Shown here one piece after another: positions 5,168-19,535 of a stretch of DNA of 19,535 nucleotides. The first letter of the stretch is position 1, and each line of letters begins with the position of its first letter. The stretch comes from Prevotellaceae bacterium (lineage in GTDB: Bacteria; Bacteroidota; Bacteroidia; Bacteroidales; UBA932): the NCBI GenBank assembly GCA_031268055.1, contig JAIRXY010000060.1, positions 1 to 19,535 of the forward strand, given 5' to 3'. The position numbers and the translations under genes were made by a program. The notes below the pieces were generated by a model. That model ran no database searches, was not told where the DNA came from, and was given only the letters and a program-made list of their open reading frames with translations.

Positions 5168-5239
5168 CAGGACGCCCCTATGCGCGCGCCCTGCAAAAAA
5201 AATGTAAACAGTAAAAAAATAGCCAATTGCACCATCACC

Positions 5240-6160
5240 ATGCCACCATCCATCAAAATATTTTCGCCTGCAACGGTTGCCAACGTCGCCTGCGGCTTCG
5301 ACGTGCTGGGCTTTGCGCTCAACAGCCCCGGCGACGAAATCAGCATAGCGCTCAACGATAGCGGCAGCCTTGAGCTGCACGACGCAACGCCCTACAAGCT
5401 GCCGCTTTCTCCCGAAAAGAATGTAGCCGCCGTAGCGCTGCAATCCATGCTCAATGCGCTGCAAAGCCATCAGGGTTTCACCATTACTTTTCTGTCGAAA
5501 ATCATGCCCGGCAGCGGCGTTGGCTCAAGCGCGGCCAGCTCTGCAGCCGGCGTGTTTGGCGCCAACGAGCTGCTTGGCCGCCCGTTCACGCGGCGGCAGC
5601 TGGTGGAGTTTGCCATGCAGGGCGAGAAGGTAGCCAGCGGCTCGGCGCACGCCGACAACGTATCGCCGGCGCTCATGGGCGGCTTCACGCTGGTGCGCAG
5701 CTACGCGCCGCTCGACGTTATCCCCATCCCCAGCCCCCCGATATTTGCCGCCGTGGTGCACCCGCAAATAGAGGTGCGCACGAGCGATAGCCGGAAAATC
5801 TTGCGCCAGGAGGTGTCCATCAAAAAGGCGGTAGAGCAGTGGGGCAACGTCGCCGGACTTGTTGCAGGGCTCTTCACCAGCGACTACGACCTCATCAGCC
5901 GCTCGCTGCACGACGTGATTGTAGAGCCTGTACGGGCGCTGCTCATCCCCGAATTTTACGCCATCAAGCAAGCCGCCATCGACGCCGGTGCGCTGGGGTG
6001 CAGCATTTCGGGAAGCGGCCCATCCATGTTTGCCTTGAGCCGGGACGAAGCTACTGCGCACAAGGTGGCGCAGGCAATGCGCTACGGATTCGACCGCGCC
6101 GGCATAGAAAGCCATACCTTTGTATCTCCCATCAACAAGGAAGGTGTGAGGGTGGTGTAA
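5240..6160 (+). CDS. thrB: Homoserine kinase (GHMP kinase family)
   Basis: Phosphorylates homoserine to O-phosphohomoserine, the substrate of threonine synthase. The frame is open from an ATG at 5180, but I place the start at 5240: the protein then begins MPPSIKIFSPATVANVACGF, which fits the family's N-terminus and gives a usual length (306 residues). The 20 extra upstream residues (MRAPCKKNVNSKK...) look like untranslated leader. GHMP motifs: the ATP-binding loop PGSGVGSSAAS near residue 90, an N-terminal FSPATVANVACGFDVLGFAL, and the C-terminal SGSGPSMFAL. It follows thrA by 72 bp and should be cotranscribed. No thrC follows; instead the HTCS gene converges on it 6 bp past the stop. The identification is firm; only the start is uncertain. 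Confidence 0.95.
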   Translation: MPPSIKIFSPATVANVACGFDVLGFALNSPGDEISIALNDSGSLELHDATPYKLPLSPEKNVAAVALQSMLNALQSHQGFTITFLSKIMPGSGVGSSAASSAAGVFGANELLGRPFTRRQLVEFAMQGEKVASGSAHADNVSPALMGGFTLVRSYAPLDVIPIPSPPIFAAVVHPQIEVRTSDSRKILRQEVSIKKAVEQWGNVAGLVAGLFTSDYDLISRSLHDVIVEPVRALLIPEFYAIKQAAIDAGALGCSISGSGPSMFALSRDEATAHKVAQAMRYGFDRAGIESHTFVSPINKEGVRVV

Positions 6161-6166
6161 GGACAA

Positions 6167-9100
6167 CTACGAGCTCTTCACGCTAACGGCTTTATTCCTG
6201 TACTCCTTGGGCGTAAGCTGATATTTCTTTGAAAATTCGCGATAGAAGTAGGCCTTGTTGTTAAACCCGCAGCAGTACATTATCTCCTGCACCGTTTTAT
6301 TCGTTGTCTTTAGCAGCCGCTCGGCATGCTCCAAGCGTATTGCGCGAATAAACTCGGTTGGCGTTTGGTCTGTGAGTTCCTTTATTTTTCGGTATAGCTG
6401 CATTTTGCTAATGGCAGTTTCGCTTGCGACGTACTCCAGCGACAGGCTTTCTTCGGCTATATTCTTTTTTACAATCAGGCTGATTCGGGTCAGCAAATCT
6501 TTATCTTCCTTGCGTATCAGCTTTCCCTGAAATTGCTCCAATCCGGCATAGTGCGATTTGCTGTAGTCTGTTACCGCTTTATTTCGGTGCGTCAGGCTTT
6601 CGACCAGCGCTTTCAGGTGTCGAGGATGAAATGGCTTTGGCAGGTAAGCGTCGGCGCCCGTTTCTATCCCTTCTATCTGGCTTTCGATAGAGCCTTTGCT
6701 CGACAACAGTATGACCGGAATGTGCCGCGCTTGCTCTTGGCTCTTCATCACCTGAACAAATTCTACCCCATTCATATTGGGCATGATAACATCGCAAACA
6801 ACAATTGCCGGCGTTCGATTTTTTAGGATTTCCAAGCCTTCTTTTCCGTCGCTGGCTTCTACCACTTCAAAATTCTTTGACAAAATGCCATGTAGCAGCG
6901 CGCGTATTTCCTTATCGTCGTCAATAACCAGAATGAGGCCATTTTTTTGCGCTTTCTCTCCCTGCCTTTCGTCCGAGTTAGGCATCGTGCGCTCCTCTAC
7001 GCCAACGGGTGGCGGGGCAAGCGGCAGGGCAATGCTCTGCCTTGCCGGATGCTGCTCTACCGATTTTTGGGGCAGGGTGACTACAAAGGTTGTATAGGTT
7101 TCGCCATCGCTCAGCACCTCAATGGTACCGCTCAGCATTTCAACAATGCTCTTGCATAGCGCCAACCCAATTCCGCTCCTTGTTTCAAAGCGCTCCGATA
7201 TTTGCATTTCAAAATGCTCCAGCACCTTAAAGCGGTCAAAGATGGCCTTTCTGTCGGCATTTTGTATGCCAACGCCGGTGTTGGTTATTTCAAAGAGCAG
7301 GTTGCCATTCTTTTCTTCTACCTTGATAGTGAGCATCTCCTCTCGCGGCGTATACTTTACGGCATTTGAAATAAGATTGAAAGCAAGCTTTTCGAATCCG
7401 TCGCGGTCTGTATTCCACGTAAGCGGTTGCGATGGGAAGCAACAGCGCAGCGTAATTTTTCGCTGCTCAAGTATCTCAATAAAGTGGTCTATAACAAAGC
7501 GTATCAGCTCTAAAATATCCACCGGCTCTATGCTTAAGGTTAGAAATCCCGTTTCGGCCTTTCGAAATTCAATAAGCTGCTGAATAAGGGATTGCATCCG
7601 CTGAGAGTTTGTTCGAATGGTGTTGAGGTGTTTTCTCGTGGCGTCACCGCTGCCAATCATCTGCATAAGCTGCTCGCAGGGAGCATAAATAAGCGTTAGA
7701 GAGTTGGAGAACTCGTGGGCAATATTGGTAAAAAAGCGCAGCTTTGCCTGATGAATTTCCTCCGTTTTTTGGCGTTCAAACTCTTTGGCTTTAATGCTAT
7801 TCTTAATGGCCATTCGATACTTCAGCTGCTTTCGAATCAGAACGATTAGCCCGATGCACAGCGCAGCGTAGCCCATGTATGCCCAAATGCTTGCCCACCA
7901 CGGAGGCAGTATTGTTACGGGCAAGGAGAAGCATGTTTCGCTCCATATCTTATCGGAGTTGCTTCCGCGCACCCTCAGCGTGTAGCTTCCCGGAGGCACA
8001 TTGCTGAGCACTATTGCCGACGAGGTGCCCAGCTGTATCCATCCCTTGTCGTAGTTTTCCAGACGGTAGGCAATTTCGCACTTTACCCCCGAAAGGTAGT
8101 CGAGCGAGACAAACTTAAAGCTGACCGGCTTGTAGCTGCTCTTTAGCAGCAGCGTTTCTTTATGTCCTCGGGTTTTGATGTAGTCGTACAGGTGTGTTTC
8201 AACATTTTGTATGTAAAAAGCGTCCAAAATCATTGGCGGCATGTAGGAGTTATCGGCTACTGCCGGCGGGTCAAAAACGTTGAAGCCGCTAATCCCGCCG
8301 AAGTAGAGGTCTGAGGAGAAAGGACTTTTGTAGTAAGCGCCATCCGAAAACTCGTTGTTCTGAAGCCCATCCTTCTGAAAGTAGGAAATAATCCGGTAGC
8401 GCTGCTCTTTGAGCAGCAGCCGCGCAACGCCGCGGTTGGTGCTCACCCAGAGGCTGTGCTCCACGTCCTCCAAGATACCGTGAATGGTGTTGTTGGGTAT
8501 CCCCTCTTTTTCGGTAAAGCGCGTAAAAACAGGAATGTCGCCGTCGAAACGCTCCAGCTTGTTAAGCCCCATGCTTGTTCCTATCCAAAGCGCCCCCGCG
8601 GCATCTTTTTTGAGGCACAGGATATCGTCGCTGCTTATGCTCTGTGGCTGGCTGCTTGAGAATCGGTATGCCTGAAACGTTTCGGTTTGCGTATTAAAGC
8701 GGTTAAGCCCGCCTCCTCGCGTGCCAATCCAGAGGTACGCGCTATCGTCGGCAACGATGGCGTAAACAATGTTGCTGCTCAACGAGCCATGCCTTCCGCC
8801 GTCAAACATGTATCGCTTGTACGATTGCACCGAAAGCGGTTGCGTGCGGCGGTTAATGCACAGCTTGTACATTCCGTATCCGCTTGTTCCCACCCACAGC
8901 GTATTGCTGTCGGTGGGCAGTATGGCGTATACCGATGAAAGGTTTATGCCTCGCCTCTGCTCTTGCGATATTGAGAGGGCGCTTAGCTGGTTTGCCTTTA
9001 CGTCAAAATAGTTCAACCCGTACCCGTCTGTGCCAATCCAGTACTCGCCGCCCTGCCCTTGGGCAATGGTGAAAACGGAGCTGTTAATCAATCCCTCGCT

Positions 9101-10255
9101 GGTTGTTATGCGCTGCTTGCAGCGGATGCTCGCGCTGGAGGTCTTGTCAAAAATAAATATACCGCCACCCTTAGTTCCCACCCACAGCTCATTGCGGTCG
9201 TTTTCGAGGAAGCACCGAACGGCGTCTTTCCCAAAACCCAGCGCGCTTCCGGCGGTGTAAGCGTAGAAGGTGCTGCGCGGCTGCGAGAGCATATAAATAC
9301 CCTGCATATCGGTGCCTACCCAAATAATTTGCTGCGTCCCCTTGCAGAGGGATAGCAGCTGAATAGCAGGTAGGACGCGAGTAACCTCTCGCTTTTCAAT
9401 ATCATAATAGTACAAGCCGTTGCTTGTTCCCCACACCTGATGGGTATCAAAAAAGAGTACCGCTTTGAGCGCTCCGTTGCCGGCGGCAGCAACGGGGTAG
9501 TGCCTCAACCTGCCGTCCGCTATCCTGTAGGAGGTTAGGTTGCCAGAGGAATCCTGCATCAGAATTTCGTTGGCTGCGGGGTCGAAAAAAACGGCCTCAG
9601 GGGTAGTATTCGACAAATTCATACCGCAGACGGAAATTACGCTCGGCATATCCCAGCTGCTTTTGTCCAGCACAACCTTGTACAGGCGCTTATCGGTGGT
9701 ATGAATCCACAAATTGTCGTCGAGGTCAAAAAATATTTTTTCGGCTTGCAGCTTATCTTGCTCGTACAACCGAACAAAGCGCCTGCTGCTGCTGCTAAAG
9801 TAAAAAATACCCTGCCCGTATATTTGCGCAAAAATACGGTTAGCGCTGCTCTTGGCCAGCAGGAAAGAGCGTTCAACCACAGAGCTTTGCGTTCCATCGT
9901 TGGCAAAGAAATGCTCAAACTTTCCGTTTTTTCTATTCAGCCTGTCGACGCCCCTGTCGGTGGCAATCCAAAGCGTATGGCTGTTTTCCTCTACAATATC
10001 CCGAATAATGTTGTTGCTAATGGCAAAAGGATTGTTAACGTCCGGCTTGTACACCTTAAACTCTCTGCCGTTGTACATGTTTAGCCCGTCCCATGTGCCA
10101 AACCACATCACGCCGCTCGAATCTTGCAGCATAGTATTGATAGAGCTGTTTGAAAGTCCATCGTTATTGGTCAGGTTTACAACGCTATACCTATCATTTG
10201 CGGAGACAGCAAAAGAAATACAAAAAATCGGCAGCAGGAGAATATTTTTTTGCAT
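6167..10255 (-). CDS. Hybrid two-component system sensor kinase/response regulator (HTCS) of the PUL
   Basis: A one-protein periplasmic sensor, kinase and DNA-binding regulator, typical of Bacteroidota glycan loci; it should activate the divergent operon. The frame is open to an ATG at 10480, but ATG 10255 (1362 residues) gives a signal peptide MQKNILLLPIFCISFAVSA directly before the first propeller motif and leaves the divergent promoter region free. Order: two-bladed beta-propeller sensor at about 25-710 with at least ten LWxGT-type motifs (MWFGT, LWIAT, LWVGT, YWIGT, LWIGT); Y_Y_Y domain at about 715-775; membrane segment at about 785-808; HisKA with phospho-His 847; HATPase with N-box LISNAVKYT near 962 and GIGLAL; receiver with phospho-Asp 1155 (VVCDVIMPNMNG) and switch Lys in LPKPF; AraC-type HTH at about 1260-1355. 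Odd points: the H-box reads HEFSNSL, where HExRTPL is usual, and the ATP-binding Asp of the DxG motif is Asn (ITNTGVGI). Confidence 0.96.
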   Translation of the reverse strand: MQKNILLLPIFCISFAVSANDRYSVVNLTNNDGLSNSSINTMLQDSSGVMWFGTWDGLNMYNGREFKVYKPDVNNPFAISNNIIRDIVEENSHTLWIATDRGVDRLNRKNGKFEHFFANDGTQSSVVERSFLLAKSSANRIFAQIYGQGIFYFSSSSRRFVRLYEQDKLQAEKIFFDLDDNLWIHTTDKRLYKVVLDKSSWDMPSVISVCGMNLSNTTPEAVFFDPAANEILMQDSSGNLTSYRIADGRLRHYPVAAAGNGALKAVLFFDTHQVWGTSNGLYYYDIEKREVTRVLPAIQLLSLCKGTQQIIWVGTDMQGIYMLSQPRSTFYAYTAGSALGFGKDAVRCFLENDRNELWVGTKGGGIFIFDKTSSASIRCKQRITTSEGLINSSVFTIAQGQGGEYWIGTDGYGLNYFDVKANQLSALSISQEQRRGINLSSVYAILPTDSNTLWVGTSGYGMYKLCINRRTQPLSVQSYKRYMFDGGRHGSLSSNIVYAIVADDSAYLWIGTRGGGLNRFNTQTETFQAYRFSSSQPQSISSDDILCLKKDAAGALWIGTSMGLNKLERFDGDIPVFTRFTEKEGIPNNTIHGILEDVEHSLWVSTNRGVARLLLKEQRYRIISYFQKDGLQNNEFSDGAYYKSPFSSDLYFGGISGFNVFDPPAVADNSYMPPMILDAFYIQNVETHLYDYIKTRGHKETLLLKSSYKPVSFKFVSLDYLSGVKCEIAYRLENYDKGWIQLGTSSAIVLSNVPPGSYTLRVRGSNSDKIWSETCFSLPVTILPPWWASIWAYMGYAALCIGLIVLIRKQLKYRMAIKNSIKAKEFERQKTEEIHQAKLRFFTNIAHEFSNSLTLIYAPCEQLMQMIGSGDATRKHLNTIRTNSQRMQSLIQQLIEFRKAETGFLTLSIEPVDILELIRFVIDHFIEILEQRKITLRCCFPSQPLTWNTDRDGFEKLAFNLISNAVKYTPREEMLTIKVEEKNGNLLFEITNTGVGIQNADRKAIFDRFKVLEHFEMQISERFETRSGIGLALCKSIVEMLSGTIEVLSDGETYTTFVVTLPQKSVEQHPARQSIALPLAPPPVGVEERTMPNSDERQGEKAQKNGLILVIDDDKEIRALLHGILSKNFEVVEASDGKEGLEILKNRTPAIVVCDVIMPNMNGVEFVQVMKSQEQARHIPVILLSSKGSIESQIEGIETGADAYLPKPFHPRHLKALVESLTHRNKAVTDYSKSHYAGLEQFQGKLIRKEDKDLLTRISLIVKKNIAEESLSLEYVASETAISKMQLYRKIKELTDQTPTEFIRAIRLEHAERLLKTTNKTVQEIMYCCGFNNKAYFYREFSKKYQLTPKEYRNKAVSVKSS

Positions 10256-10273
10256 AGCACTTACATTTTTGCA

Positions 10274-10281
10274 CAAATGTA
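10274..10281 (-). promoter_or_regulatory. Probable -7 box (TACATTTG) for the HTCS gene
   Basis: On the minus strand TACATTTG fits TAnnTTTG and lies 18 bp upstream of the chosen HTCS start at 10255. It supports that start over the upstream ATG at 10480, which would place this promoter inside the gene. No clear -33 TTG is seen. The leader would be very short, about 10-15 nt. Confidence 0.45.
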
Positions 10282-10329
10282 CAGAAAATAGGAGTGAGAG
10301 AAGTGCGAAGCCCCCCATTTTAACGCCTC

Positions 10330-10363
10330 GTGTAAAATAAGTACACCTATTTGAAATAATAGG
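10330..10363. promoter_or_regulatory. Paired inverted repeats between the HTCS gene and the PUL operon (candidate operator)
   Basis: Two perfect inverted repeats abut: GTGTA-N7-TACAC (10330-10346) and CCTATT-N6-AATAGG (10346-10363), sharing one base. Together they span 34 bp roughly midway in the 200-bp region between the divergent start codons at 10255 and 10456. That is where an HTCS or another regulator of both directions would bind. An imperfect direct repeat (TGTAAAATAAG at 10331, TGAAATAATAG at 10352; 7 of 11 identical, 21 bp apart) overlaps them, which would suit an AraC-type domain binding the same face of DNA. Short AT-rich repeats can occur by chance. Confidence 0.35.
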
Positions 10364-10370
10364 ATACCCT

Positions 10371-10397
10371 TTGTTCTGCATATACCTGCCATCTTTG
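10371..10397 (+). promoter_or_regulatory. Weak promoter-like elements for the PUL operon
   Basis: CATCTTTG (10390-10397) matches seven of eight positions of the -7 pattern TAnnTTTG, with TTG at 10371-10373. The spacer is 16 bp, shorter than the usual 19-21. A poor core promoter would suit an operon that depends on activation by the HTCS. It lies 27 bp downstream of the paired inverted repeats and leaves a leader of about 50 nt. Confidence 0.25.
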
Positions 10398-10455
10398 CAG
10401 GCAGATACGGAAAACAAAAAAACGGCCACACTAAAAAAAATAATCAAGCATACAC

Positions 10456-11499
10456 ATGGATATTGCAAAACGCTCGCCACACAACCCTCTGCTACGCCCC
10501 TCCGACCTGCAACCGGGCATAGAAGGAATGGAAATTACCTGCCTGCTCAACCCCGGCGTATTCCGCATGGACGGAAAAACATGGCTGGCGCTACGGGTAG
10601 CCGAACGCCCAAAGCAGGTGGAAGGGAAAATCAGCTTTCCTGTTTACGCCCCCAGCGGAGCAATCAAAGTGCTCAGCTTTGATAAGGACGACCCGCAGCT
10701 CGACCTTTCCGATCCGAGGGTTATTGCGTATGAAGGGAAAAACTACCTCACCACCATGTCCTACCTACGGCTGGTGTATAGCGACGATGATATTCATTTT
10801 CAAGAAGATGAACATTACCCGCCTATTTTTGGCAGAGGAGAGCTGGAAAGTTTTGGCATAGAAGACTGTAGAGTTTCTACCACGCCGGACGGGTTTTACC
10901 TGACTTTCACCGAGGTTTCGCCGGTGGCTGTTGGCGTAGGGCTTATCACAACAAAAGATTTTAGAAGCTTTGAGCGAAAGGGCATGATTTTTCCGCCCCA
11001 TAACAAGGATTGCGCCATTTTTGAAGAAAAAATCAACGGAGCGTTTTACGCCTTTCACCGCCCAAGCAGCCCCGAGCTGGGCGGCAACTACATTTGGCTG
11101 GCCGAATCGCCCGATGGCGTTCACTGGGGCAAGCACCAATGCGTGGCCGTTACCCGCGCCGGCAAGTGGGACAGCGCGCGCGTGGGGGCAGGCGCGGCCC
11201 CCATAAGAACCAAGGACGGATGGCTGGAGATTTACCACGGCGCTGATAGCCAAAATCGCTACTGCCTGGGGGCGCTGCTGCTCGACCTAAATGACCCATC
11301 GAAGGTGCTGGCTCGCTCCGAGGAGCCAATTATGGAGCCAACGGCTAAGTACGAGCAAGCAGGTTTTTTTGGCAACGTGATATTTACCAACGGCTGCTAC
11401 CTCAACGGCGATACTGTCAGGCTGTTTTACGGCGCAAGCGACGAGGTGATTTGTAGCGCCGATATGTCAATCAACGAGATTCTAACCACCCTAAAGTAG
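10456..11499 (+). CDS. GH130 family glycoside phosphorylase (probable beta-mannoside phosphorylase)
   Basis: A 347-residue protein without a signal peptide, so cytoplasmic. GH130 enzymes form a five-bladed propeller; most cleave beta-mannosides with phosphate to give mannose 1-phosphate, while a few are hydrolases that have lost the phosphate-binding residues. Seen: the catalytic-acid motif GIEDCR (Asp 137; EDPR is commoner), HNKD with Lys 184, HRP with His 201/Arg 202, GAGAAPI near 244-250, GWLEIYHGAD with His 261, and the conserved tail LLDLNDPSKVLAR ... FFGNVIF ... LFYGASDE. The retained Arg, Lys and His residues favour a phosphorylase over a hydrolase. The linkage (beta-1,2, 1,3 or 1,4) and acceptor cannot be read from sequence. 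First gene of the PUL operon, 5 bp before the MFS gene, which suggests that the transporter supplies its substrate. The start region is A-rich without a Shine-Dalgarno sequence. Confidence 0.92.
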   Translation: MDIAKRSPHNPLLRPSDLQPGIEGMEITCLLNPGVFRMDGKTWLALRVAERPKQVEGKISFPVYAPSGAIKVLSFDKDDPQLDLSDPRVIAYEGKNYLTTMSYLRLVYSDDDIHFQEDEHYPPIFGRGELESFGIEDCRVSTTPDGFYLTFTEVSPVAVGVGLITTKDFRSFERKGMIFPPHNKDCAIFEEKINGAFYAFHRPSSPELGGNYIWLAESPDGVHWGKHQCVAVTRAGKWDSARVGAGAAPIRTKDGWLEIYHGADSQNRYCLGALLLDLNDPSKVLARSEEPIMEPTAKYEQAGFFGNVIFTNGCYLNGDTVRLFYGASDEVICSADMSINEILTTLK

Positions 11500-11504
11500 C
11501 ATAG

Positions 11505-12767
11505 ATGTTAAAAAAAATTGCAGGAGAATACGCTTTCTTCAAGTCGCAACCCCATAATATACGCACGCTGTTGGTCACCAACATGCTGTATGCCATTATT
11601 TTGCCCGTTATAGAAATCTTTGTTGGAGCTTACATCATGCGCAATACCGGCAGCTCTTCATACGTAGCCATTTACCAGCTCTGCATGTACTTTGGCATTG
11701 TGGTGACCTCCATGCTGAACGGAGCGCTGCTAAACGTGTTCAAGGCAAGCGGGTTGTACGGTTTTGGCATTATCGTATCGGCAGGCGCGCTAATGGCAAT
11801 GATGTTTGTGAACAACCTGAACATGGCAGGGTTAGGTATTTCAGGCTTTACGTTAGGGGCCGCTACCGGATTTTTCTGGACTAACCGCTACCTGCTCACC
11901 CTAAACGCCACCAACGACAGCAACCGCAACTATTTTTTTGGCATTGAGTCATTTTTCTTTTCGCTATGGAGCATTGCAGTTCCCTTGGCGGTGGGCGCTT
12001 TTTTGGGAACCATCGAAAGCATTGAGGTATTCGGGTACAGGCCTAACGTACGCACCGGCTACCAAGTCATTACGGTCATCATGCTGGTGGCCGCGGCGGG
12101 CGCCTGCGTTGCCTTATCAAAGGGCAAGTTTGAAAACCCTAAGCAAAGGAGATTTTTTTACCTGCGCTTTCACCAGCTATGGAACAAGCTGCTTGCGCTG
12201 GCCGGGCTGAAGGGCATGGTGCAGGGATTTCTGGTCACAGCTCCTGCTATCTTGGTGATGAAGCTGGTGGGCAGCGAAGGCTCGCTTGGGCTAATGCAGG
12301 GCATTGCCGGCGGCATAACGGCCGTTCTTGTGTACCTGCTGGGGCGCGTGGCAAAGCCAGAGCACCGGATGAAAATTTTTGGATTTGGGCTGCTGGTATT
12401 TTTTGCAGGAACGCTGTTCAACGGAGCGCTGTTTTCTGCCATCGGCGTTGTCATTTTTGTGCTCTGCAAGGTGCTGTTTCAGCCGCTGCACGACTTGGCC
12501 TACTTCCCTACCATGATGAAAGCTATTGACGCTGTATCGGCCATCGAAAAGCGCAGCGAGTACGCCTACATTTTGAGCCACGAGATGGGGCTTTTTGCCG
12601 GACGAGCAGCAGGAATGTTGCTGTTTATCTGGCTGGCGTACTTTGTTTCCGAAACATTTGCGCTCAAGTATGCGCTCATCATCGTGGCCGGCATACAGCT
12701 GCTATCGCTGCCGCTGGCAAAGCACATTATTAAAGAAATAGATACAAAACACTCGAATTTGTCGTAG
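11505..12767 (+). CDS. MFS-type inner-membrane transporter, probable glycoside importer
   Basis: A 420-residue polytopic membrane protein with about 11-12 hydrophobic segments, including about 22-45, 52-72, 84-101, 105-122, 142-165, 183-203, 225-250, 300-330, 360-378 and 385-405. A cytoplasmic, basic central stretch (KGKFENPKQRRFFYLRFHQ, about 205-223) divides two halves, as in the major facilitator superfamily. The second half carries GRVAKPEHRMKIFGFG, an MFS-like loop. The gene lies 5 bp after GH130 and 4 bp before the lipoprotein gene, so translation is probably coupled. The pairing of an MFS importer with a cytoplasmic GH130 suggests uptake of a di- or oligosaccharide from the periplasm. 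The substrate is inferred from context only. There is no sign of damage. Confidence 0.82.
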   Translation: MLKKIAGEYAFFKSQPHNIRTLLVTNMLYAIILPVIEIFVGAYIMRNTGSSSYVAIYQLCMYFGIVVTSMLNGALLNVFKASGLYGFGIIVSAGALMAMMFVNNLNMAGLGISGFTLGAATGFFWTNRYLLTLNATNDSNRNYFFGIESFFFSLWSIAVPLAVGAFLGTIESIEVFGYRPNVRTGYQVITVIMLVAAAGACVALSKGKFENPKQRRFFYLRFHQLWNKLLALAGLKGMVQGFLVTAPAILVMKLVGSEGSLGLMQGIAGGITAVLVYLLGRVAKPEHRMKIFGFGLLVFFAGTLFNGALFSAIGVVIFVLCKVLFQPLHDLAYFPTMMKAIDAVSAIEKRSEYAYILSHEMGLFAGRAAGMLLFIWLAYFVSETFALKYALIIVAGIQLLSLPLAKHIIKEIDTKHSNLS

Positions 12768-12771
12768 ACAC

Positions 12772-14499
12772 ATGAAAACCGGAAAAATTACGTTGGCAAT
12801 GCTTGCTGTAACCGTCTGCGCTTGCGCGGCGTGTGGCGGAAAGGAGGATTACGGAAGCGCCGTTCCGCAAACGGCCATTCCGCGCGTAGAGCTAATGCCG
12901 AATAATCCTCAGCCCTACAAAATTATCGGCTGGCGGCAAAAAGCCGTTGACTACGACAGCTACGTGTTTGACTTCGGCGCACGCTACCCCGCCGGAGCAG
13001 TGATATGGTTAGACAGCAGCCGGCGCAACCTGCCGCAGGTGACCTTTGGGCTTTACACTGCCATAAACGACTCGCGCCAAGGCCCTACAAACAACGGCGG
13101 AGAGTTTCACGAAAGCCTCAACAGCATGGCCGCCGTGCTGGGCGCAGGCTTGGTAGGCATTGACAAAACCAACCAGCACGGATTCAACTTTGTAAAAATG
13201 CTGCAAAGCTACTTCAACTCGGCCACCGGCTGGAACATCATGATGAACAACACTACCCCACAAGTAGCCTTGCTGGGCGGCGGATACGGCCGCGACTGGT
13301 GGTACGATGTGCTGCCTAACGTGCTGTTTTACGCTATTTGCGACGTATTCCCCAACGTCGACAACGCCGATAACATCCAGCGCTCCATCGCCGAGCAATT
13401 CTACAAAGCCGACTCCACCCTGAGCGGCTGCTACGACTACTCGTACTTTGACTACGCTCAAATGAAGGGTATGGTTAACCAAATAGCGCTTCAGCAGGAC
13501 GCCGCCGGAGGGCATGGGTACGTGCTGTACGCTGCCTACCAAAAATACGGCGACGCGCGCTACCTGTCCGGCGCAAAATCGGCTATCGAGGCGCTGGACA
13601 AGCAGCAGGAAAGCCGCTTTTACGAAATACTGCTGCCTATGGGCGTCTACACCGCCGCACGCCTCAACGCAGAGCACAGCGCCAGCTACGACGTTGAGAA
13701 AATGCTTAGCTGGGTTTTTGACGGGTGCAAAAGCGTAAGCGGGCGCTACGGCTGGGGCGTTATCGCAGGAAAATGGGGGCGCTACGACGTTAGCGGGCTA
13801 CAGGGCAGCACGACGGACGGCGGCGGGTATGCCTTCCTGATGAACAGCATGAAAATGGCATGGCCGCTTGTGCCTATGGTAAAGTATCAGCCGGAATTTG
13901 CGCGCGCCATCGGAAAGTGGATGCTGAACAACACGAACGCGGCGCGCCTGTTTTTTCCCAACGAAATAGAAGACAGCCTGCAGTGGCTGCCGGAGCTAAA
14001 GGAGCATACCGGCGCGCTGGTTGCCTACGAAGGGCTACGGTACGAGGATGCCTACTCTAAGCCGGAGCTGAAGGGCGCGCACCCCGTGGCGCTGGGCGAC
14101 GGCCCCAGGTGGACGAGCAGCAACCCAAAGGAGAGCATGTTCAGCCTTTACAGCACCTCGCCGATAGGCATTATGGGCGCTATGGTTGACACAACAAGCG
14201 TAAAAATGATACTCCGGTTGGACTGCAACGTAACCGACTTTTACGCGCCGCGAAAGTTCCCTACCTACCTCTACTACAATCCGTATCCTGTAGATACATC
14301 CATTGCTTATCAGGCCAAAGGGAGCAGCGATATTTTTGACATTGTTGCCAGAAAGTACGTGGCAAAGAATGTGCACGCCGAAGCCAGCATCAAGCTCGGC
14401 GCAGATCAGGCCGCTATCCTTGTAGAGCTGCCTGCCGGAGCAAAAATCAAGCGGGAAGGCCGTACGCTGAAAGTAGGTCGCGAAATTATTTCATTCTGA
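12772..14499 (+). CDS. Unrecognised 575-residue PUL lipoprotein, candidate glycan-processing enzyme
   Basis: I do not recognise the family. The N-terminus is a lipoprotein signal ending at Cys 21 (ACAAC-GGKEDYG). The lipobox is unusual (Cys at -3), but KED just after the cysteine resembles the Bacteroidota surface-export signal. The centre (about 90-430) is helical and rich in Trp, Tyr, Gly and acidic residues, with segments such as GGGYGRDWWYDVLPN (near 165-180), FDYAQMKGM, GWGVIAGKWGRYDVSG and STTDGGGYAF; this looks like an (alpha/alpha)-barrel sugar-acting protein. The last 120 residues look like beta-strands (TYLYYNPYPVDTS, FDIVARKYV, DQAAILVELPAGAK), as in the accessory beta-sandwich of many such enzymes. 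It lies 4 bp after the MFS gene and 23 bp before SusC, inside the operon. No other degradative enzyme is visible in the PUL, so a glycosidase, lyase or epimerase role is possible. Catalytic residues cannot be assigned. Confidence 0.7.
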   Translation: MKTGKITLAMLAVTVCACAACGGKEDYGSAVPQTAIPRVELMPNNPQPYKIIGWRQKAVDYDSYVFDFGARYPAGAVIWLDSSRRNLPQVTFGLYTAINDSRQGPTNNGGEFHESLNSMAAVLGAGLVGIDKTNQHGFNFVKMLQSYFNSATGWNIMMNNTTPQVALLGGGYGRDWWYDVLPNVLFYAICDVFPNVDNADNIQRSIAEQFYKADSTLSGCYDYSYFDYAQMKGMVNQIALQQDAAGGHGYVLYAAYQKYGDARYLSGAKSAIEALDKQQESRFYEILLPMGVYTAARLNAEHSASYDVEKMLSWVFDGCKSVSGRYGWGVIAGKWGRYDVSGLQGSTTDGGGYAFLMNSMKMAWPLVPMVKYQPEFARAIGKWMLNNTNAARLFFPNEIEDSLQWLPELKEHTGALVAYEGLRYEDAYSKPELKGAHPVALGDGPRWTSSNPKESMFSLYSTSPIGIMGAMVDTTSVKMILRLDCNVTDFYAPRKFPTYLYYNPYPVDTSIAYQAKGSSDIFDIVARKYVAKNVHAEASIKLGADQAAILVELPAGAKIKREGRTLKVGREIISF

Positions 14500-14522: not shown

Positions 14523-17500
14523 ATGAAAAAATTACTTTTACTATTATTCTTCATGGGCTGGATTTTTGCCGCGCAAGCGCAGCAGCCACTTCAGATTAGC
14601 GGCAGAGTGACCGACGAGGAAACGGGCGAAGCAATGGCAGGGGTTAGCGTTGTAGAAGCCGGCGCTACCAACGGAGCAATAAGCGACGTTGATGGCAGCT
14701 TTAGCCTAACGGCACATCAAGGCGCTACGCTGGTTTTTTCGTATATGGGGTACCAAACCCAGCGCATTGCGGTAAGCAGCGCATCTCCGCTGGCTATTCG
14801 CCTGAGCACAGACAGCAAAGCCATTGACGAGGTTGTGGTAGTGGGGTATAGCGTGCAAAAAAAGCGCGACATAACGGGCGCTGTGAGCAAGGTCGAAGGT
14901 AAAGATTTGCACAAAATCCCCACGCCGTCGACGCAGCTGGCGCTTCAAGGACGCATAGCAGGCGTACACGTGAGCAACCAAACAGGCTCGCCCGGCGCGC
15001 CTGTTGCCATACGTATTCGCGGCGTTGGCTCTATCAGCTCAAGCAACGAGCCGCTGTACATCGTAGATGGTATTCCGGTAGAGAGCGGGCTAAGCAACAT
15101 CGCGCCAAGCGAAATCGAAAGCATTTCGGTGCTAAAGGACGCTTCGTCTGCCGCCATTTACGGGTCGCGCGCCAACAACGGCGTGGTGCTGATTACAACT
15201 ACCGGCGGAAAAGCCGGAGAGCACAGGGTAACCTACAACGCTCAGGCCGGCGTTCAGCGGCACGGGCGGCTGACCCCAATGGCCACTACCAGCCAGTACA
15301 TTGAGCTGTACAACGAGGCGGCCTCCGTAGATAACGTGGGCGCGCCTACTACAAGACCGCTGATAGAAGGCAGCTACATGAAAGATTTTCCGAACGTAAA
15401 CCACGTGGAAGAAATTTTTCAGGTAGCCCCGCTACAGTCGCACGAGGTATCAATAAGCGGCGGGTCGGAGAAAACGCAGTACCTGCTCGCCCTCTCCTAC
15501 TTCGACCAGACAGGCATCATAAAGCACACGGATTACAACCGCCTTGGCGTGCGCACAAACATCAGCTCAAACGTAAAAGACTGGCTACAGGTGGGGCTAA
15601 ACATGAACGTTGGCAGCTCTTTGCAGCAGAGGGTTTCGAGCTCCGGCGACGGGTATGCCGGCGAGGGAGGTAGCGTGGTGCGATACGCATTCTTTCGCAA
15701 CCCTGCCATACCTGTACGCGATGATAACAACGCGCTTGTGGACAAACCCTCCGAATACTACGGCAACGCCGTGTACGATTCGTTCTTTGGCGATGGCTAC
15801 AACCCTGTGGGCTTGGCAGAGAACACAGATATGACCGCCAACCTCAAATCGCTGCTGATTTCCGGAAATGTGCTGGTAAAGCTCCCCTTCAACTTTTCAA
15901 TCAAAGGCGTGGCCGGCGTTGACTACGGCAAAACGCTATCCCGCACGTTTAACCAGACATGGGGCACCGGCAACCGAATCAATGCTGTCAACAGCTTAGA
16001 CGTAAGCAACACCGAGAATATGACCATAACGGCCAACGCTACCTTAAACCATAGCTTCCGGATAGCCGACGAGCATTCGGTCAGCTGGTTTGCAGGGATG
16101 GAGGCCATCCGCGAAAATGGGCAAGCGCTGGGAGGCAGCGAGGGTACTTTTACCAACCTGCTCTACCTCGGAAAAGGCCAAACTCAAAAAAGACCCTACC
16201 AAAGCGAGTGGGATGCAAGCTTGCTATCATTTTTTGGCTCCCTGAGCTACAGCTACAGCCAAAAATACTACGTAACGCTGCTGCTACGCGAAGACGGCTC
16301 ATCGCGCTTTACGGCTGGCAACCGCTGGGGAACATTCTACTCGGTGTCGGGAGGATGGAACATAGAAAGCGAAGAGTTTATGCAGGCGCTAACCGCCATC
16401 AGCAAGCTCAAGCTGCGCGCCGGATACGGGGCTATCGGCAACCAGAACATCGGGCTGTACGCCAACTTGGGCAGGTACTCCGACCAGCGCTACTACTCCT
16501 TTGGCGGCGCGGCCTACAACGGGTACGTCCTGTCAAAGCTGGGAAACTCCGAGCTGAAGTGGGAAACCAGCAAGCAGGTCAACGTCGGCGTTGACCTTGA
16601 GCTCTGGAAAGGAAGCGTGGGCGTGACCGTAGACTACTATTACAAAATAACCGACAACATGCTGGCGCAAGCCTCCTACCCTCCTTCGGTAGGAAGCGTT
16701 GAGCTGCCTTGGGTAAACAACGGCAGCGTGCTCAACGCGGGGGTGGACGCCGAGATATTCTACCGCAAGAGCTACGCTCACGGTGGATTCAACGTAGCGC
16801 TCAACGGTGGATTTCTGCACAACGAGGTAATCTCGCTGGCGGCCCCCATTGAGTCCGGACGAATAGACGGAGGCGTTTACGCCACTCGGACGGAGGTGGG
16901 GCACCCCATAGGGTCATTCTACCTGTACGAAATGGAGGGGATTTTCCAAAACGAGCTGGAGGTGCTCACGTCTGCCTACCAAGGCAGGGGCATTCAGCCC
17001 GGCGACGTGAAGTACAAGGACAGCAATAAAGACGGGAGAATTGACGCCAAAGACCGCACATTTGTCGGCAGCGCCATCCCTACGTTTACGGCGGGGCTTA
17101 ACCTGTCGGGCAGCTACAGGAGCTGGGATGTTAGCCTGTTTTTTCAGGGGGCTTTCGGGCAAAAAATCTACTCGCAAATCAACCAAGACATCGAAGGTTT
17201 CTACCGCGGGTTTAACGTAACCAAGCGCTTCTACGACGAGCGGTGGACCGGCGAAGGAAGCTCCAGCACGCAGCCCAGAGCCTCGTGGTCGGGCAAGCAA
17301 AACAACGCCAGAGCAGGAACTACCCGCTTTCTGGAGGACGGCTCTTACGTGCGCCTTAAAAATATTCAGGTGGGATACACCATTCCCAATACGCAAAAAA
17401 TTCATATAGAAGCTTTCAGGGTATATGCAGCAGCCACCAACTTGCTAACGCTCACCGGATACTCGGGGTTAGACCCGGAAATGACGGTAAGTACCAACTC

Positions 17501-17591
17501 CCTTAGCGAGGGCGACCGCGCCAACGGCATCGACTGGGGGACGTACCCCGTGGCTATGTGCTTTACCCTTGGGCTGAACGTAACATTTTAA
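14523..17591 (+). CDS. SusC/RagA family TonB-dependent outer-membrane glycan transporter
   Basis: A 1022-residue outer-membrane channel that imports bound oligosaccharides using TonB energy, working with the SusD-like lipoprotein next to it. Signal peptide: 1-20, cleaved after AQA. Then a carboxypeptidase-regulatory-like domain at about 24-95 (ISGRVTDEETGEAMAGVSV, GYQTQRIAV), a TonB-box region with EVVVVGYSVQKKRDITGAV near 103-122, and a plug domain with the family signature LKDASSAAIYGSRANNGVV near 204-222. The beta-barrel fills the rest, including the periplasm-side insertion DVKYKDSNKDGRID, and the protein ends in the aromatic LGLNVTF expected for outer-membrane insertion. There is no N-terminal FecR-interaction (STN) domain, consistent with HTCS rather than sigma/anti-sigma control. 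It starts after an A-rich stretch and is followed 15 bp later by susD. Confidence 0.96.
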   Translation: MKKLLLLLFFMGWIFAAQAQQPLQISGRVTDEETGEAMAGVSVVEAGATNGAISDVDGSFSLTAHQGATLVFSYMGYQTQRIAVSSASPLAIRLSTDSKAIDEVVVVGYSVQKKRDITGAVSKVEGKDLHKIPTPSTQLALQGRIAGVHVSNQTGSPGAPVAIRIRGVGSISSSNEPLYIVDGIPVESGLSNIAPSEIESISVLKDASSAAIYGSRANNGVVLITTTGGKAGEHRVTYNAQAGVQRHGRLTPMATTSQYIELYNEAASVDNVGAPTTRPLIEGSYMKDFPNVNHVEEIFQVAPLQSHEVSISGGSEKTQYLLALSYFDQTGIIKHTDYNRLGVRTNISSNVKDWLQVGLNMNVGSSLQQRVSSSGDGYAGEGGSVVRYAFFRNPAIPVRDDNNALVDKPSEYYGNAVYDSFFGDGYNPVGLAENTDMTANLKSLLISGNVLVKLPFNFSIKGVAGVDYGKTLSRTFNQTWGTGNRINAVNSLDVSNTENMTITANATLNHSFRIADEHSVSWFAGMEAIRENGQALGGSEGTFTNLLYLGKGQTQKRPYQSEWDASLLSFFGSLSYSYSQKYYVTLLLREDGSSRFTAGNRWGTFYSVSGGWNIESEEFMQALTAISKLKLRAGYGAIGNQNIGLYANLGRYSDQRYYSFGGAAYNGYVLSKLGNSELKWETSKQVNVGVDLELWKGSVGVTVDYYYKITDNMLAQASYPPSVGSVELPWVNNGSVLNAGVDAEIFYRKSYAHGGFNVALNGGFLHNEVISLAAPIESGRIDGGVYATRTEVGHPIGSFYLYEMEGIFQNELEVLTSAYQGRGIQPGDVKYKDSNKDGRIDAKDRTFVGSAIPTFTAGLNLSGSYRSWDVSLFFQGAFGQKIYSQINQDIEGFYRGFNVTKRFYDERWTGEGSSSTQPRASWSGKQNNARAGTTRFLEDGSYVRLKNIQVGYTIPNTQKIHIEAFRVYAAATNLLTLTGYSGLDPEMTVSTNSLSEGDRANGIDWGTYPVAMCFTLGLNVTF

Positions 17592-17606: not shown

Positions 17607-19028
17607 ATGAAGAAGAAGCTACTACATCTATCTATGGCGTCCGTTGCCCTGCTAATGGGCGGATGCAGCGATTTTTTGGACTTATCCATGAAATCCGACT
17701 ATTCCCCCGAAAACTACTTTACCTCGGAGGAGGCTGCTGTAATGGCAGTCACAGGTGTTTACAATTCGCTCTACGGAGCCCGATGGTGGATTTTTGGCGA
17801 CGTTGCCTCCGACGACGCCGTCAAAGGTGGAAACCCCGGCGATCAGGCCGACATCATCGCTATTGACAACTTTTCCGCCGCCTCCGACAACGGCGCTATT
17901 AGCGAGTTCTGGACAAAAACATACACCACCATTGCGCAGGCAAACAACGTAATAGAATACCTTGCTCCAATGGATATACAGCTCCGCGAAAGGCTGATTG
18001 GAGAAGCCAAGTTCATCCGCGCATTTTCGTACTTCAACCTGGTAAATATTTTCGGAAAAGTACCCTACAAGGCCATGCCACAGGTTACGGCTGATGCTAT
18101 CCACGTGGGGCTAAGCGAGGTTGACTACATCTACGGCAAAATAGAGGACGACCTGCGGGCTGCCGTCAGCGCCCTGCCACCCTCGTACACCGCCACCGAC
18201 AAAGGGCGCGTAACCAAAGGAGCCGCCCATGCTATGCTGGCCAAGGTACTCCTGTACCAAGAAAAATACGCCGAGTGCCTGTACGAAATTGGGCAGCTGG
18301 ACTCGCTAAAGCTGTACAGGCTGGTGAGCAGCTACGCCGACTTGTTCCATTCGGGCGCAGAGGACAGCGCAGAAGTCATCTTTGGGCTGCGCTTTGTCAA
18401 CACCACCGAGGTTGCGCTTGGCAACGCCTTTAGCGTATGGATGGCGCCATCAATTGACGGCGGCTACTACTTTAACGCGCCAACGCAAGCGTTTGTTGAT
18501 TGCTTCAACGAAAAAACCGTTGACATGGAAGACGACCCGCGCCTCGACGCCTCCATCGGGAGGGAGGGAAAGCCGTGGTTTGACGGCAAGACCTTTGATG
18601 CTTCATGGTCGGAAACGGGCTTTTTGGTCAGGAAGTACAGCGAAGAAAATCCGCTAAAGCTGCCCATAGCGCAATCAACCGTCCCGTACCACTACCTGCG
18701 CTACGCCGACGTGCTGCTCATGAAGGCCGAGGCCGTTAGCGAGCTGGGCGGCGCCAGCGCAGTAGCCGAGGCTGCCACGGCGCTGAACAGGGTACGCAGC
18801 CGCGCGCGGCTGAGCAGCACAACCGCGGCAACGCCCAGCGACATGCAGCGGGCAATTCGTACCGAACGTAGACGGGAGCTGGGCTTTGAGTTCCACCGCT
18901 TTTTTGACCTGATGCGCTGGGGCGAGACCGGCGTGCTGGGCAGCGACTTCACGTGGCAAGGAAAGCGCAGCTTCTACTTCCCCATTCCGCAAATGGAGGT
19001 AGATGCAAACAAGGCGCTAAGCGAGTAG
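17607..19028 (+). CDS. SusD/RagB family surface glycan-binding lipoprotein
   Basis: A 473-residue lipoprotein that caps the SusC channel and binds the glycan. The signal peptide ends in the lipobox LMGGC (Cys 20), followed by SDFLDLSMKSDYSPENYF, the usual SusD opening. The TPR-rich scaffold is seen in KFIRAFSYFNLVNIFG, VTKGAAHAMLAKVLLYQ and YLRYADVLLMKAEA. The C-terminal RTERRRELGFEFHRFFDLMRWG and FPIPQMEVDANKAL are family signatures. The protein stops at ANKALSE, a few residues short of the usual NPGY-type ending, at two consecutive TAG codons. The C-terminal tail is therefore slightly short, without a frameshift. It is 15 bp after SusC. A hairpin lies in the 105 bp that follow. Confidence 0.95.
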   Translation: MKKKLLHLSMASVALLMGGCSDFLDLSMKSDYSPENYFTSEEAAVMAVTGVYNSLYGARWWIFGDVASDDAVKGGNPGDQADIIAIDNFSAASDNGAISEFWTKTYTTIAQANNVIEYLAPMDIQLRERLIGEAKFIRAFSYFNLVNIFGKVPYKAMPQVTADAIHVGLSEVDYIYGKIEDDLRAAVSALPPSYTATDKGRVTKGAAHAMLAKVLLYQEKYAECLYEIGQLDSLKLYRLVSSYADLFHSGAEDSAEVIFGLRFVNTTEVALGNAFSVWMAPSIDGGYYFNAPTQAFVDCFNEKTVDMEDDPRLDASIGREGKPWFDGKTFDASWSETGFLVRKYSEENPLKLPIAQSTVPYHYLRYADVLLMKAEAVSELGGASAVAEAATALNRVRSRARLSSTTAATPSDMQRAIRTERRRELGFEFHRFFDLMRWGETGVLGSDFTWQGKRSFYFPIPQMEVDANKALSE

Positions 19029-19133: not shown

Positions 19134-19535
19134 ATGAAAAAAAATCTTTTCAGAAATGCTTTTACAGCATTAGCAGCAGTAGCCCTGATGGCTACCACAT
19201 TCGTTGCTTGCAGCAGCGACGACGACCAAACCGAGGCAGCCGACAAGACCGCCTTGCAAGCGCTTGTTACCGAGAGCGAAACCCTCGCCAACAGCGCCAC
19301 CACAGCCGAGTATCCCCAAGCGGCTATTGACGCTTTTAAAAGCGTGATTACCGCCGCCAAAGCAATTCTGGCAAATGAAAGCGCCACGCAAACAGCAGTG
19401 GACAACATTGTGACGCAGCTTACCGAGGCAAAGGTTACGTTTGAAGGGAATAAGTACGAAGCTATTCCAGCATCAAACCTTTTGATTGGCCTAAGCTTTG
19501 ACGAAGGAGCTGAAGCTACCACACAGCTAACAGCT
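19134..19535 (+). CDS. Surface lipoprotein with FIVAR-like domain, probable glycan-binding protein (partial, 3' end outside window)
   Basis: The gene begins at ATG 19134 after an AT-rich leader and runs off the right edge with 134 codons visible. The signal peptide ends in FVAC (Cys 26). It is followed by SSDDDQ, an acidic stretch of the kind that sends Bacteroides lipoproteins to the cell surface. Residues about 38-104 are a helical, Ala/Thr-rich module (ALQALVTESETLANSA, AIDAFKSVITAAKAILA, AVDNIVTQLTEAK) resembling FIVAR three-helix domains, which often accompany glycan-binding modules. LLIGLSFDEGAEATTQL at the end looks like the first strand of a LamG/concanavalin-like beta-sandwich. The place after SusD is where surface glycan-binding proteins sit. 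It lies 105 bp after SusD, with a hairpin between them, so its level may differ from SusCD. An enzyme in the missing part cannot be excluded. Confidence 0.75.
   Translation, partial: MKKNLFRNAFTALAAVALMATTFVACSSDDDQTEAADKTALQALVTESETLANSATTAEYPQAAIDAFKSVITAAKAILANESATQTAVDNIVTQLTEAKVTFEGNKYEAIPASNLLIGLSFDEGAEATTQLTA

What the first reader, a model, noticed from the sequence alone, without database searches (positions are those of the whole stretch)
12772..14499. Unrecognised PUL lipoprotein that may be a new carbohydrate-active enzyme family
Seen: a 575-residue lipoprotein with a KED surface-export-like signal, an aromatic- and Gly-rich helical core, and a beta-strand-rich C-terminal segment, embedded between an MFS importer and SusC. 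Known: PULs normally encode at least one enzyme that cuts the imported glycan before the cytoplasmic step. Inference: no other degradative enzyme is visible here, so this protein is the likely source of the GH130 substrate. I could not assign it to any glycoside hydrolase or lyase family I know.
Basis: partly seen in the sequence, partly recalled or inferred. Interest (0 to 1): 0.7.

Follow-up and report, generated by a model that had tools for sequence, protein, structure and literature searches.

The report
Unnamed mannan-locus enzyme family candidate
A bacterial surface protein with no named family sits beside genes that break down an unusual mannose sugar chain, has thousands of relatives with an unchanging set of acidic residues, and is probably an unrecognised sugar-cutting enzyme.

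Summary
The 575-aa ORF at 12772-14499 (X) is real and lies in the run GH130-MFS-X-SusC-SusD. It matches no Pfam or NCBIfam family and no PDB sequence beyond chance, yet has thousands of homologues, in Planctomycetota and Acidobacteriota too. In 386 aligned sequences E114, E285, E420 and D443 never vary where present. Of 395 genomes drawn evenly from the window's phylum, 18 others carry an X-family gene; 16 of them have GH130 within 9 kb (about 0.24 expected). The neighbouring GH130 is closest to Uhgb_MS and Lin0857, linked to beta-1,2-mannobiose, so beta-1,2-mannosides are the likelier substrate. Best reading: X is an exported glycan-cutting enzyme of an unclassified family that feeds SusCD, MFS and GH130. 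This is inference; no activity or structure is shown. CAZy could not be searched.

The parts
12772..14499 (+). X: 575-aa exported, probably lipid-anchored protein of an unnamed family, candidate glycan-cutting enzyme
   Evidence: ORF and translation; no Pfam/NCBIfam match, PDB hit only at chance level; E114, E285, E420, D443 unvaried in 386 aligned sequences where present
10456..11499 (+). GH130 mannoside phosphorylase, nearest to Uhgb_MS and the beta-1,2-mannobiose phosphorylase Lin0857
   Evidence: PF04041 5.8e-43; PDB 9eqq 3e-179, 5b0p 1.1e-93; below the cut-off of every NCBIfam equivalog it matched
11505..12767 (+). MFS transporter, probable inner-membrane oligosaccharide importer
   Evidence: PF07690 3.5e-09; role inferred
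14523..17591 (+). SusC-like TonB-dependent outer-membrane importer
   Evidence: PF13715, PF07715, PF00593
17607..19028 (+). SusD-like glycan-binding protein
   Evidence: PF07980, PF14322
19134..19535 (+). start of a LamG-type lipoprotein, cut by the end of the contig; its remainder and the X2 paralogue lie on overlapping contig C297 (L002)
   Evidence: 119-nt exact overlap; PF13385 on the remainder, Por_Secre_tail on X2
6167..10480 (-). hybrid two-component regulator (HTCS) beside the locus, probable glycan sensor
   Evidence: Reg_prop, Y_Y_Y, HisKA, HATPase_c, Response_reg, HTH_18

Best explanation
X is an exported, probably lipid-anchored and surface-exposed, glycan-depolymerising enzyme of an unclassified family, most likely a glycoside hydrolase. 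It cuts a beta-mannosidic glycan, most likely one with beta-1,2-mannosyl links, outside the cytoplasm. The oligosaccharides enter through SusC/SusD and the MFS porter and are phosphorolysed in the cytoplasm by the GH130 next door to mannose-1-phosphate. The downstream paralogue X2, with a type IX secretion tail, would do a similar job outside the cell. Shown: the gene, the conserved locus, the invariant acidic residues, the GH130 neighbourhood. Inferred: catalysis, linkage, endo or exo mode, fold, surface exposure, and which acids are catalytic.
For: A GH130 gene over the Pfam cut-off lies within 9 kb of the X-family gene in 16 of 18 other genomes from an even draw of 395, and GH130 by BLAST in 72 of the 80 nearest GTDB loci, with GH130-MFS-X in that order in 52 and SusC directly downstream in 72. 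The link outlasts the transport genes: in the nine most distant genomes GH130 stays in seven, with GH2 genes (Pfam-checked in two, L218 and L221, one with mannosidase Ig domains) and ABC-type transport genes recognised from translations. The window's GH130 is closest to Uhgb_MS (9eqq, 3e-179) and Lin0857; a review lists both with beta-1,2-mannobiose (PMC8950772, passages). E285, E420 and D443 unchanged in 386 of 386, E114 in 380 of 380 with a residue there, D489 in 385 of 386, D62 in 377 of 379. Family members carry LamG, T9SS tails or, in 3 of the 120 rows, CBM9-like domains.
Against: No activity data, no structure, no detectable homology to a hydrolase. Profile comparison with GH76, GH88, GH127, GH144 and AGE gave nothing significant. 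Conserved acids alone do not prove hydrolysis. GH13, GH2 or the 820-aa protein of relatives could be the main cutting enzymes, and GH13 suggests alpha-glucose in some substrates, which a pure beta-1,2-mannan lacks. The linkage rests on one neighbour's relatives: Uhgb_MS is called a mixed-linkage synthase, its cellular role was not seen, and the window's GH130 stays under the NCBIfam cut-off for beta-1,2-mannobiose phosphorylase (194.5 of 450 bits). Co-occurrence cannot tell a depolymerase from an accessory enzyme.
Confidence: 0.45

Rival explanations
1. X is an accessory hydrolase that removes a side chain or cuts another linkage in a mannose-containing heteropolysaccharide, and another enzyme makes the GH130 substrate.
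For: Of 80 related loci 12 hold a GH13 (alpha-glucosidase-like) gene and 13 an unknown 820-aa gene, none both, and distant loci hold GH2, so substrates may have more than one linkage. Second X-family copies are frequent (29 of 80 loci labelled X2, others labelled X twice), as different specificities would be.
Against: GH130 is the partner that persists in 16 of 18 sampled genomes, while GH13 and the 820-aa gene come and go; many of the 80 loci are truncated, so those counts are lower bounds.
Confidence: 0.25
2. X is an alpha-toroid enzyme that is not a hydrolase: a lyase, an epimerase or a dehydratase acting on the same glycan.
For: The only Pfam family matched weakly by many members is D-glucuronyl C5-epimerase C-terminus, 19 of 40, best 2.9e-5, and it gave the best profile-comparison P (0.0006 and 0.003). 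One relative, P0214, bears a truncated UniRef label 'Linalool dehydratas'.
Against: The C5-epimerase match is one short helical hairpin (38 and 26 columns) that also draws LanC-like chains, and the scores printed for members (17.7 and 21.7 bits) are under the cut-off of 23.3. The linalool label has no support in Pfam or PDB.
Confidence: 0.2
3. X is a non-catalytic surface glycan-binding protein.
For: Probable lipoprotein in a Sus locus; SusD- and SusE-position proteins are binders by established knowledge.
Against: The SusE-like position is already taken by the LamG lipoprotein; binders usually diverge fast (recalled), whereas X keeps E285, E420, D443, W177, Y178, Y284, Y372 and Y460 without change in the 386-sequence alignment.
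Confidence: 0.1

Closest known systems
GH130 beta-1,2-mannoside phosphorylases (Uhgb_MS, Lin0857, Teth514_1788/1789)
   Same: The gene two upstream of X is nearest to these by sequence; same inferred pathway
   Different: X itself is unrelated in sequence and carries an export signal; GH130 phosphorylases are cytoplasmic (PMC4599007, passages)
Secreted GH130 beta-1,2-mannosidases of yeast-mannan PULs (BT3780, BACOVA_03624)
   Same: Would play the same outer role of attacking beta-1,2-mannosides outside the cytoplasm
   Different: Different protein family; those target beta-1,2 links in Candida mannan (PMC4599007: title, start of abstract in listings, passages)
Alpha/alpha-toroid families: C5-epimerase, GH88, GH76, GH127, GH144, AGE, LanC-like
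   Same: C5-epimerase and LanC-like proteins share one weak hairpin motif near residues 245-280 of X
   Different: No significant profile match; not members on this evidence
Linalool dehydratase-isomerase (Ldi, PF18566)
   Same: One relative, P0214, carries a truncated label of this kind in UniRef
   Different: No Pfam match for P0214, no PDB match; Ldi hits in only 2 of 148 genomes, both weak, so no usable profile (P 0.74)

Membership tests
Polysaccharide utilisation locus (SusC/D type) | adjacent SusC and SusD genes | tested here: met
Polysaccharide utilisation locus (SusC/D type) | carbohydrate-active enzyme and glycan sensor in the locus | tested here: met
   GH130, HTCS-type regulator
Known glycoside hydrolase or lyase family | match to a curated profile of such a family | tested here: not met
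   Pfam and NCBIfam for X, Pfam for 40 members and 10 distant relatives; CAZy's own profiles not available
Known glycoside hydrolase or lyase family | entry in CAZy | not testable with these tools
(alpha/alpha)6-barrel enzymes | predicted or solved barrel fold | not tested
   structure prediction switched off
(alpha/alpha)6-barrel enzymes | profile similarity to GH76, GH88, GH127, GH144, AGE | tested here: inconclusive
   P 0.021-0.17 over two runs, against 0.15-0.44 for three unrelated controls; GH144 (0.17, 0.10) overlaps the controls
Glycoside hydrolase (mechanistic kind) | invariant carboxylates | tested here: met
   E285, E420, D443 in 386 of 386, E114 in 380 of 380 with a residue; their role is not shown
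D-glucuronyl C5-epimerase (PF06662) | score above Pfam cut-off over the domain | tested here: not met
   17.7 and 21.7 bits where printed, cut-off 23.3, short stretches only; bits of the best of the 19 hits (2.9e-5) not shown
Linalool dehydratase-isomerase (PF18566) | profile match | tested here: not met
   not among the 12 families listed for 40 members at E<=10; none for P0214; HMMER filters may hide very weak matches
Bacterial lipoprotein | lipobox cysteine after a signal peptide | tested here: inconclusive
   window copy has Cys at -3; 58 of 74 orthologues fit by pattern and 16 by inspection, but L004, L006 and L008 lack it

The most novel reading that the evidence does not exclude
X founds a new glycoside hydrolase family whose members, from Bacteroidota to Planctomycetota and Acidobacteriota, are depolymerases dedicated to beta-1,2-mannan, the missing outer step of the pathway whose inner step is GH130 beta-1,2-mannoside phosphorylase.
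Probability: 0.28. Interest if true: 0.75.

Novelty: new variant of a known kind. Interest (0 to 1): 0.55.

Why it matters
Beta-1,2-mannan occurs in Candida, Leishmania and a mushroom (PMC4599007, passages). GH130 phosphorylases and secreted GH130 mannosidases for it are known, but the listings I saw named no dedicated depolymerase of another family. A large, deeply conserved family that travels with those phosphorylases is a direct candidate, and its locus offers a sensor, a substrate guess and isolates to test. If the linkage guess is wrong, it would still give a role to a protein family of thousands of members that the listings call only hypothetical or uncharacterized, apart from one doubtful label.

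Tried and rejected
Structure prediction: switched off, so no fold search. PDB by sequence and by two profiles: only chance hits. Pfam on 40 members: C5-epimerase (19 of 40), carrageenase C-terminus (6) and LanC-like (3) hits are weak; not accepted as homology. Linalool dehydratase label of P0214: not supported. hhalign against seven alpha-toroid sets with SusD, MFS and GH130 as controls: C5-epimerase P 0.0006, then 0.003 when the alignment was cut to the columns of X; GH88 0.021/0.024, GH127 0.025, AGE 0.028, GH76 0.039/0.067, GH144 0.17/0.10, Ldi 0.74; controls 0.15-0.44 and 0.28-0.41. GH144 and Ldi are no better than controls or nearly so; set sizes were 7 (C5-epimerase), 5 (GH76), 2 (Ldi) and 19-20 (others). 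Secondary-structure propensities: no contrast. Promoter and terminator scan: counts as in shuffles. Beta-1,4-mannan or N-glycan substrate: not excluded, but second choice, because TM1225, UhgbMP and 4-O-beta-mannosyl-glucose phosphorylases score 144 bits or less against 599 and 317 for Uhgb_MS and Lin0857. Literature: nine answered searches showed, by titles and abstract beginnings of capped lists (at most 40 rows of up to 88 papers), no paper on a beta-1,2-mannanase or on this family; hits for '2-mannanase' were not opened. Preprints and most subscription papers are not in that library, and a paper on GH130 diversity in gut microbiomes, PMC7660257, is not held.

Full report
What is there. The ORF at 12772-14499 encodes 575 aa, called X here. 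Four bases separate it from the MFS stop and 23 from SusC. On the same strand lie GH130 (10456-11499), MFS (11505-12767), X, SusC (14523-17591), SusD (17607-19028) and the start of a lipoprotein at 19134 that runs off the window. An HTCS-type regulator lies on the other side, on the minus strand (6167-10480). Two reverse-strand ORFs of 222 and 113 aa overlap X; I did not search them.

The window ends inside the locus. The window is contig C129 of a draft genome of 2.07 Mb in 313 contigs, 74.5% complete. Contig C297 of the same genome, reversed, begins with the last 119 nt of the window, letter for letter. It carries the rest of the lipoprotein, with a LamG domain, and then a second X-like gene (X2, 37% identical to X, 747-aa frame) with a type IX secretion tail. 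A 119-nt overlap is what neighbouring contigs of one assembly graph can show, so the link is very likely but not proved by reads. The locus is thus probably GH130-MFS-X-SusC-SusD-LamG-X2.

No known family. X has no match in Pfam or NCBIfam, and only chance-level matches in PDB sequences (profiles A1 and A2). Scanning 40 members one by one gave weak matches to 12 families; the commonest was C5-epim_C in 19 of 40, best E 2.9e-5. Where bits are printed for members they are 17.7 and 21.7 (inside the X gene of G103), under the cut-off of 23.3. The aligned part is one helical hairpin, and the same part of the profile drew LanC-like chains in PDB. Profile comparison gave P 0.0006 and 0.003 for C5-epimerase, 0.021-0.028 for GH88, GH127 and AGE, 0.039 and 0.067 for GH76, 0.17 and 0.10 for GH144 and 0.74 for Ldi, against 0.15-0.44 for SusD, MFS and GH130 controls. 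The order hints at an alpha-toroid but shows no family membership.

A large, old family. Three protein searches found 3709, 1807 and 1579 relatives at E<=1e-3, each among 8000 scored candidates; the sets overlap and each count is a lower bound. The precomputed Pfam column is empty in all but 3 of the 360 rows listed (those 3 carry PF06452, CBM9-like), and the names printed are hypothetical or uncharacterized apart from one truncated linalool label, which Pfam and PDB do not support. Organisms named include Bacteroidota, Planctomycetota, Pyrinomonadaceae (Acidobacteriota, recalled), Aerophobetes, Riflebacteria and Nealsonbacteria. Some members carry LamG, PKD or Ig and T9SS modules.

Conserved residues. 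All 349 proteins held plus the 40 rows of A1 gave 389 rows, 386 distinct. E285, E420 and D443 are present in 386 of 386, E114 in 380 of 380 rows with a residue there, D489 in 385 of 386, D62 in 377 of 379, D131 in 367 of 383. Y284, Y372, Y460 and N503 are present in 386 of 386, W177 and Y178 in 385 of 385, K132 in 383 of 383. Members down to 32% identity to X are included. All rows were found by homology to X or its relatives, so some conservation is built in; full invariance of several acids over that range still points to chemistry rather than binding. Which acids are catalytic is unknown.

The GH130 link. In an even draw of 395 genomes of the window's phylum (Bacteroidota, judged by its named relatives), 19 have an X-family gene, the window's own among them. 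Of the 18 others, 16 have a GH130 over the Pfam cut-off within 9 kb. The two misses, G361 and G148, have the gene on a short contig or near a contig end and have GH130 pairs on other contigs. From the GH130 numbers and genome sizes, about 0.24 of 18 would be expected by chance (my hand arithmetic). Among the 80 nearest GTDB loci (the best 80 of 193 confirmed), 72 have GH130 within 9 kb, 57 have MFS directly upstream, 52 have GH130-MFS-X, and 72 have SusC directly downstream. Of the 8 without GH130, seven have 2.4 kb or less upstream of X and one, L052, has 6 kb.

The link outlasts the transporters. In the nine genomes marked only 'same phylum', neither MFS nor a SusC/SusD pair was recognised near the gene (one SusC-like ORF at 25% in L225), but seven of nine have GH130 within 9 kb. 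Beside it stand GH2 genes (Pfam-checked in L218 and L221; mannosidase Ig domains in L221) and ABC-type transport genes that I recognised from translations only.

Which sugar. The window's GH130 matches the solved Uhgb_MS best (9eqq, 599 bits over residues 1-346), then Lin0857 (317 bits), then 1,2-beta-oligomannan and beta-1,2-mannobiose phosphorylases (168 and 152 bits); TM1225, placed in GH130_2 by PMC4264767 (passages), has 144 bits, UhgbMP 100, and 4-O-beta-mannosyl-glucose phosphorylases 63 or less. In NCBIfam it reaches no cut-off: 401.9 of 550 bits for NF050092 and 194.5 of 450 for beta-1,2-mannobiose phosphorylase. A review lists Uhgb_MS as a mixed-linkage mannoside synthase, with beta-1,2-mannobiose and a beta-1,2-mannosyl cap on alpha-1,2-manno-oligosaccharide among its products, and Lin0857 as beta-1,2-mannobiose phosphorylase (PMC8950772, passages). 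Beta-1,2-mannans are reported from Candida, Leishmania and Hericium, and GH130 phosphorylases are cytoplasmic while GH130 hydrolases are secreted (PMC4599007, passages). I infer that the locus feeds on beta-1,2-mannosides, perhaps within a mixed glycan or as caps on alpha-mannan.

How it most likely works. Shown: an exported-type, deeply conserved protein in a SusC/D locus with a GH130 nearest to beta-1,2 enzymes. Inferred: HTCS senses the glycan; X (and X2, secreted) cuts it outside the cytoplasm; SusC/D and MFS import the pieces; GH130 yields mannose-1-phosphate. In the 80 related loci a GH13 (12) or an unknown 820-aa protein (13) is present, never both (many loci are truncated), which suggests alternative enzymes for one further linkage, possibly alpha-glucosyl. 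That is the main reason for keeping the accessory-enzyme rival.

Limits. No structure could be predicted, CAZy could not be searched, gene contexts outside the phylum were not obtained, and the substrate is read from one neighbour's relatives. I would put about one chance in four on the family having been described in a source not held here.

Noticed in passing
L077:2481-4952, L096:16638-19094, L048:17817-20291: A secreted-looking protein of about 820 aa in relatives of this locus has no Pfam match over cut-off (three tested), no NCBIfam match (two tested) and no PDB match beyond chance (one tested). It occurs in 13 of 80 loci, never with GH13, and may be another unnamed carbohydrate enzyme.
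   Followed up: partly
L227:3918-6443: An 842-aa protein next to GH130, a GH2-like gene and X2 has a sub-threshold match to the GH94 catalytic domain (1.8e-4, 20.8 bits against 27).
   Followed up: no
L100:13075-15636: A GH116-type gene (PF04685, PF12215) lies downstream of X in this Bacteroidales locus, where SusC and SusD lie upstream of GH130 instead.
   Followed up: no
L100:2-2602: An 867-aa frame seems to begin with a GH130-like N-terminus and run on into the 820-aa family (translation start), perhaps a gene remnant or fusion.
   Followed up: no
window 2732-5167 and 5180-6160: ORFs that look like fused aspartokinase-homoserine dehydrogenase and homoserine kinase (recognised from the translation, not from a search) lie upstream of the sugar locus.
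   Followed up: no
L217:701-1870 and L071: A distant GH130 (25% identical to the window's) stands near SusC/D and an X-family gene; in L217 it seems to start with a signal peptide, so it may be a secreted, hydrolase-type GH130 (a guess).
   Followed up: no
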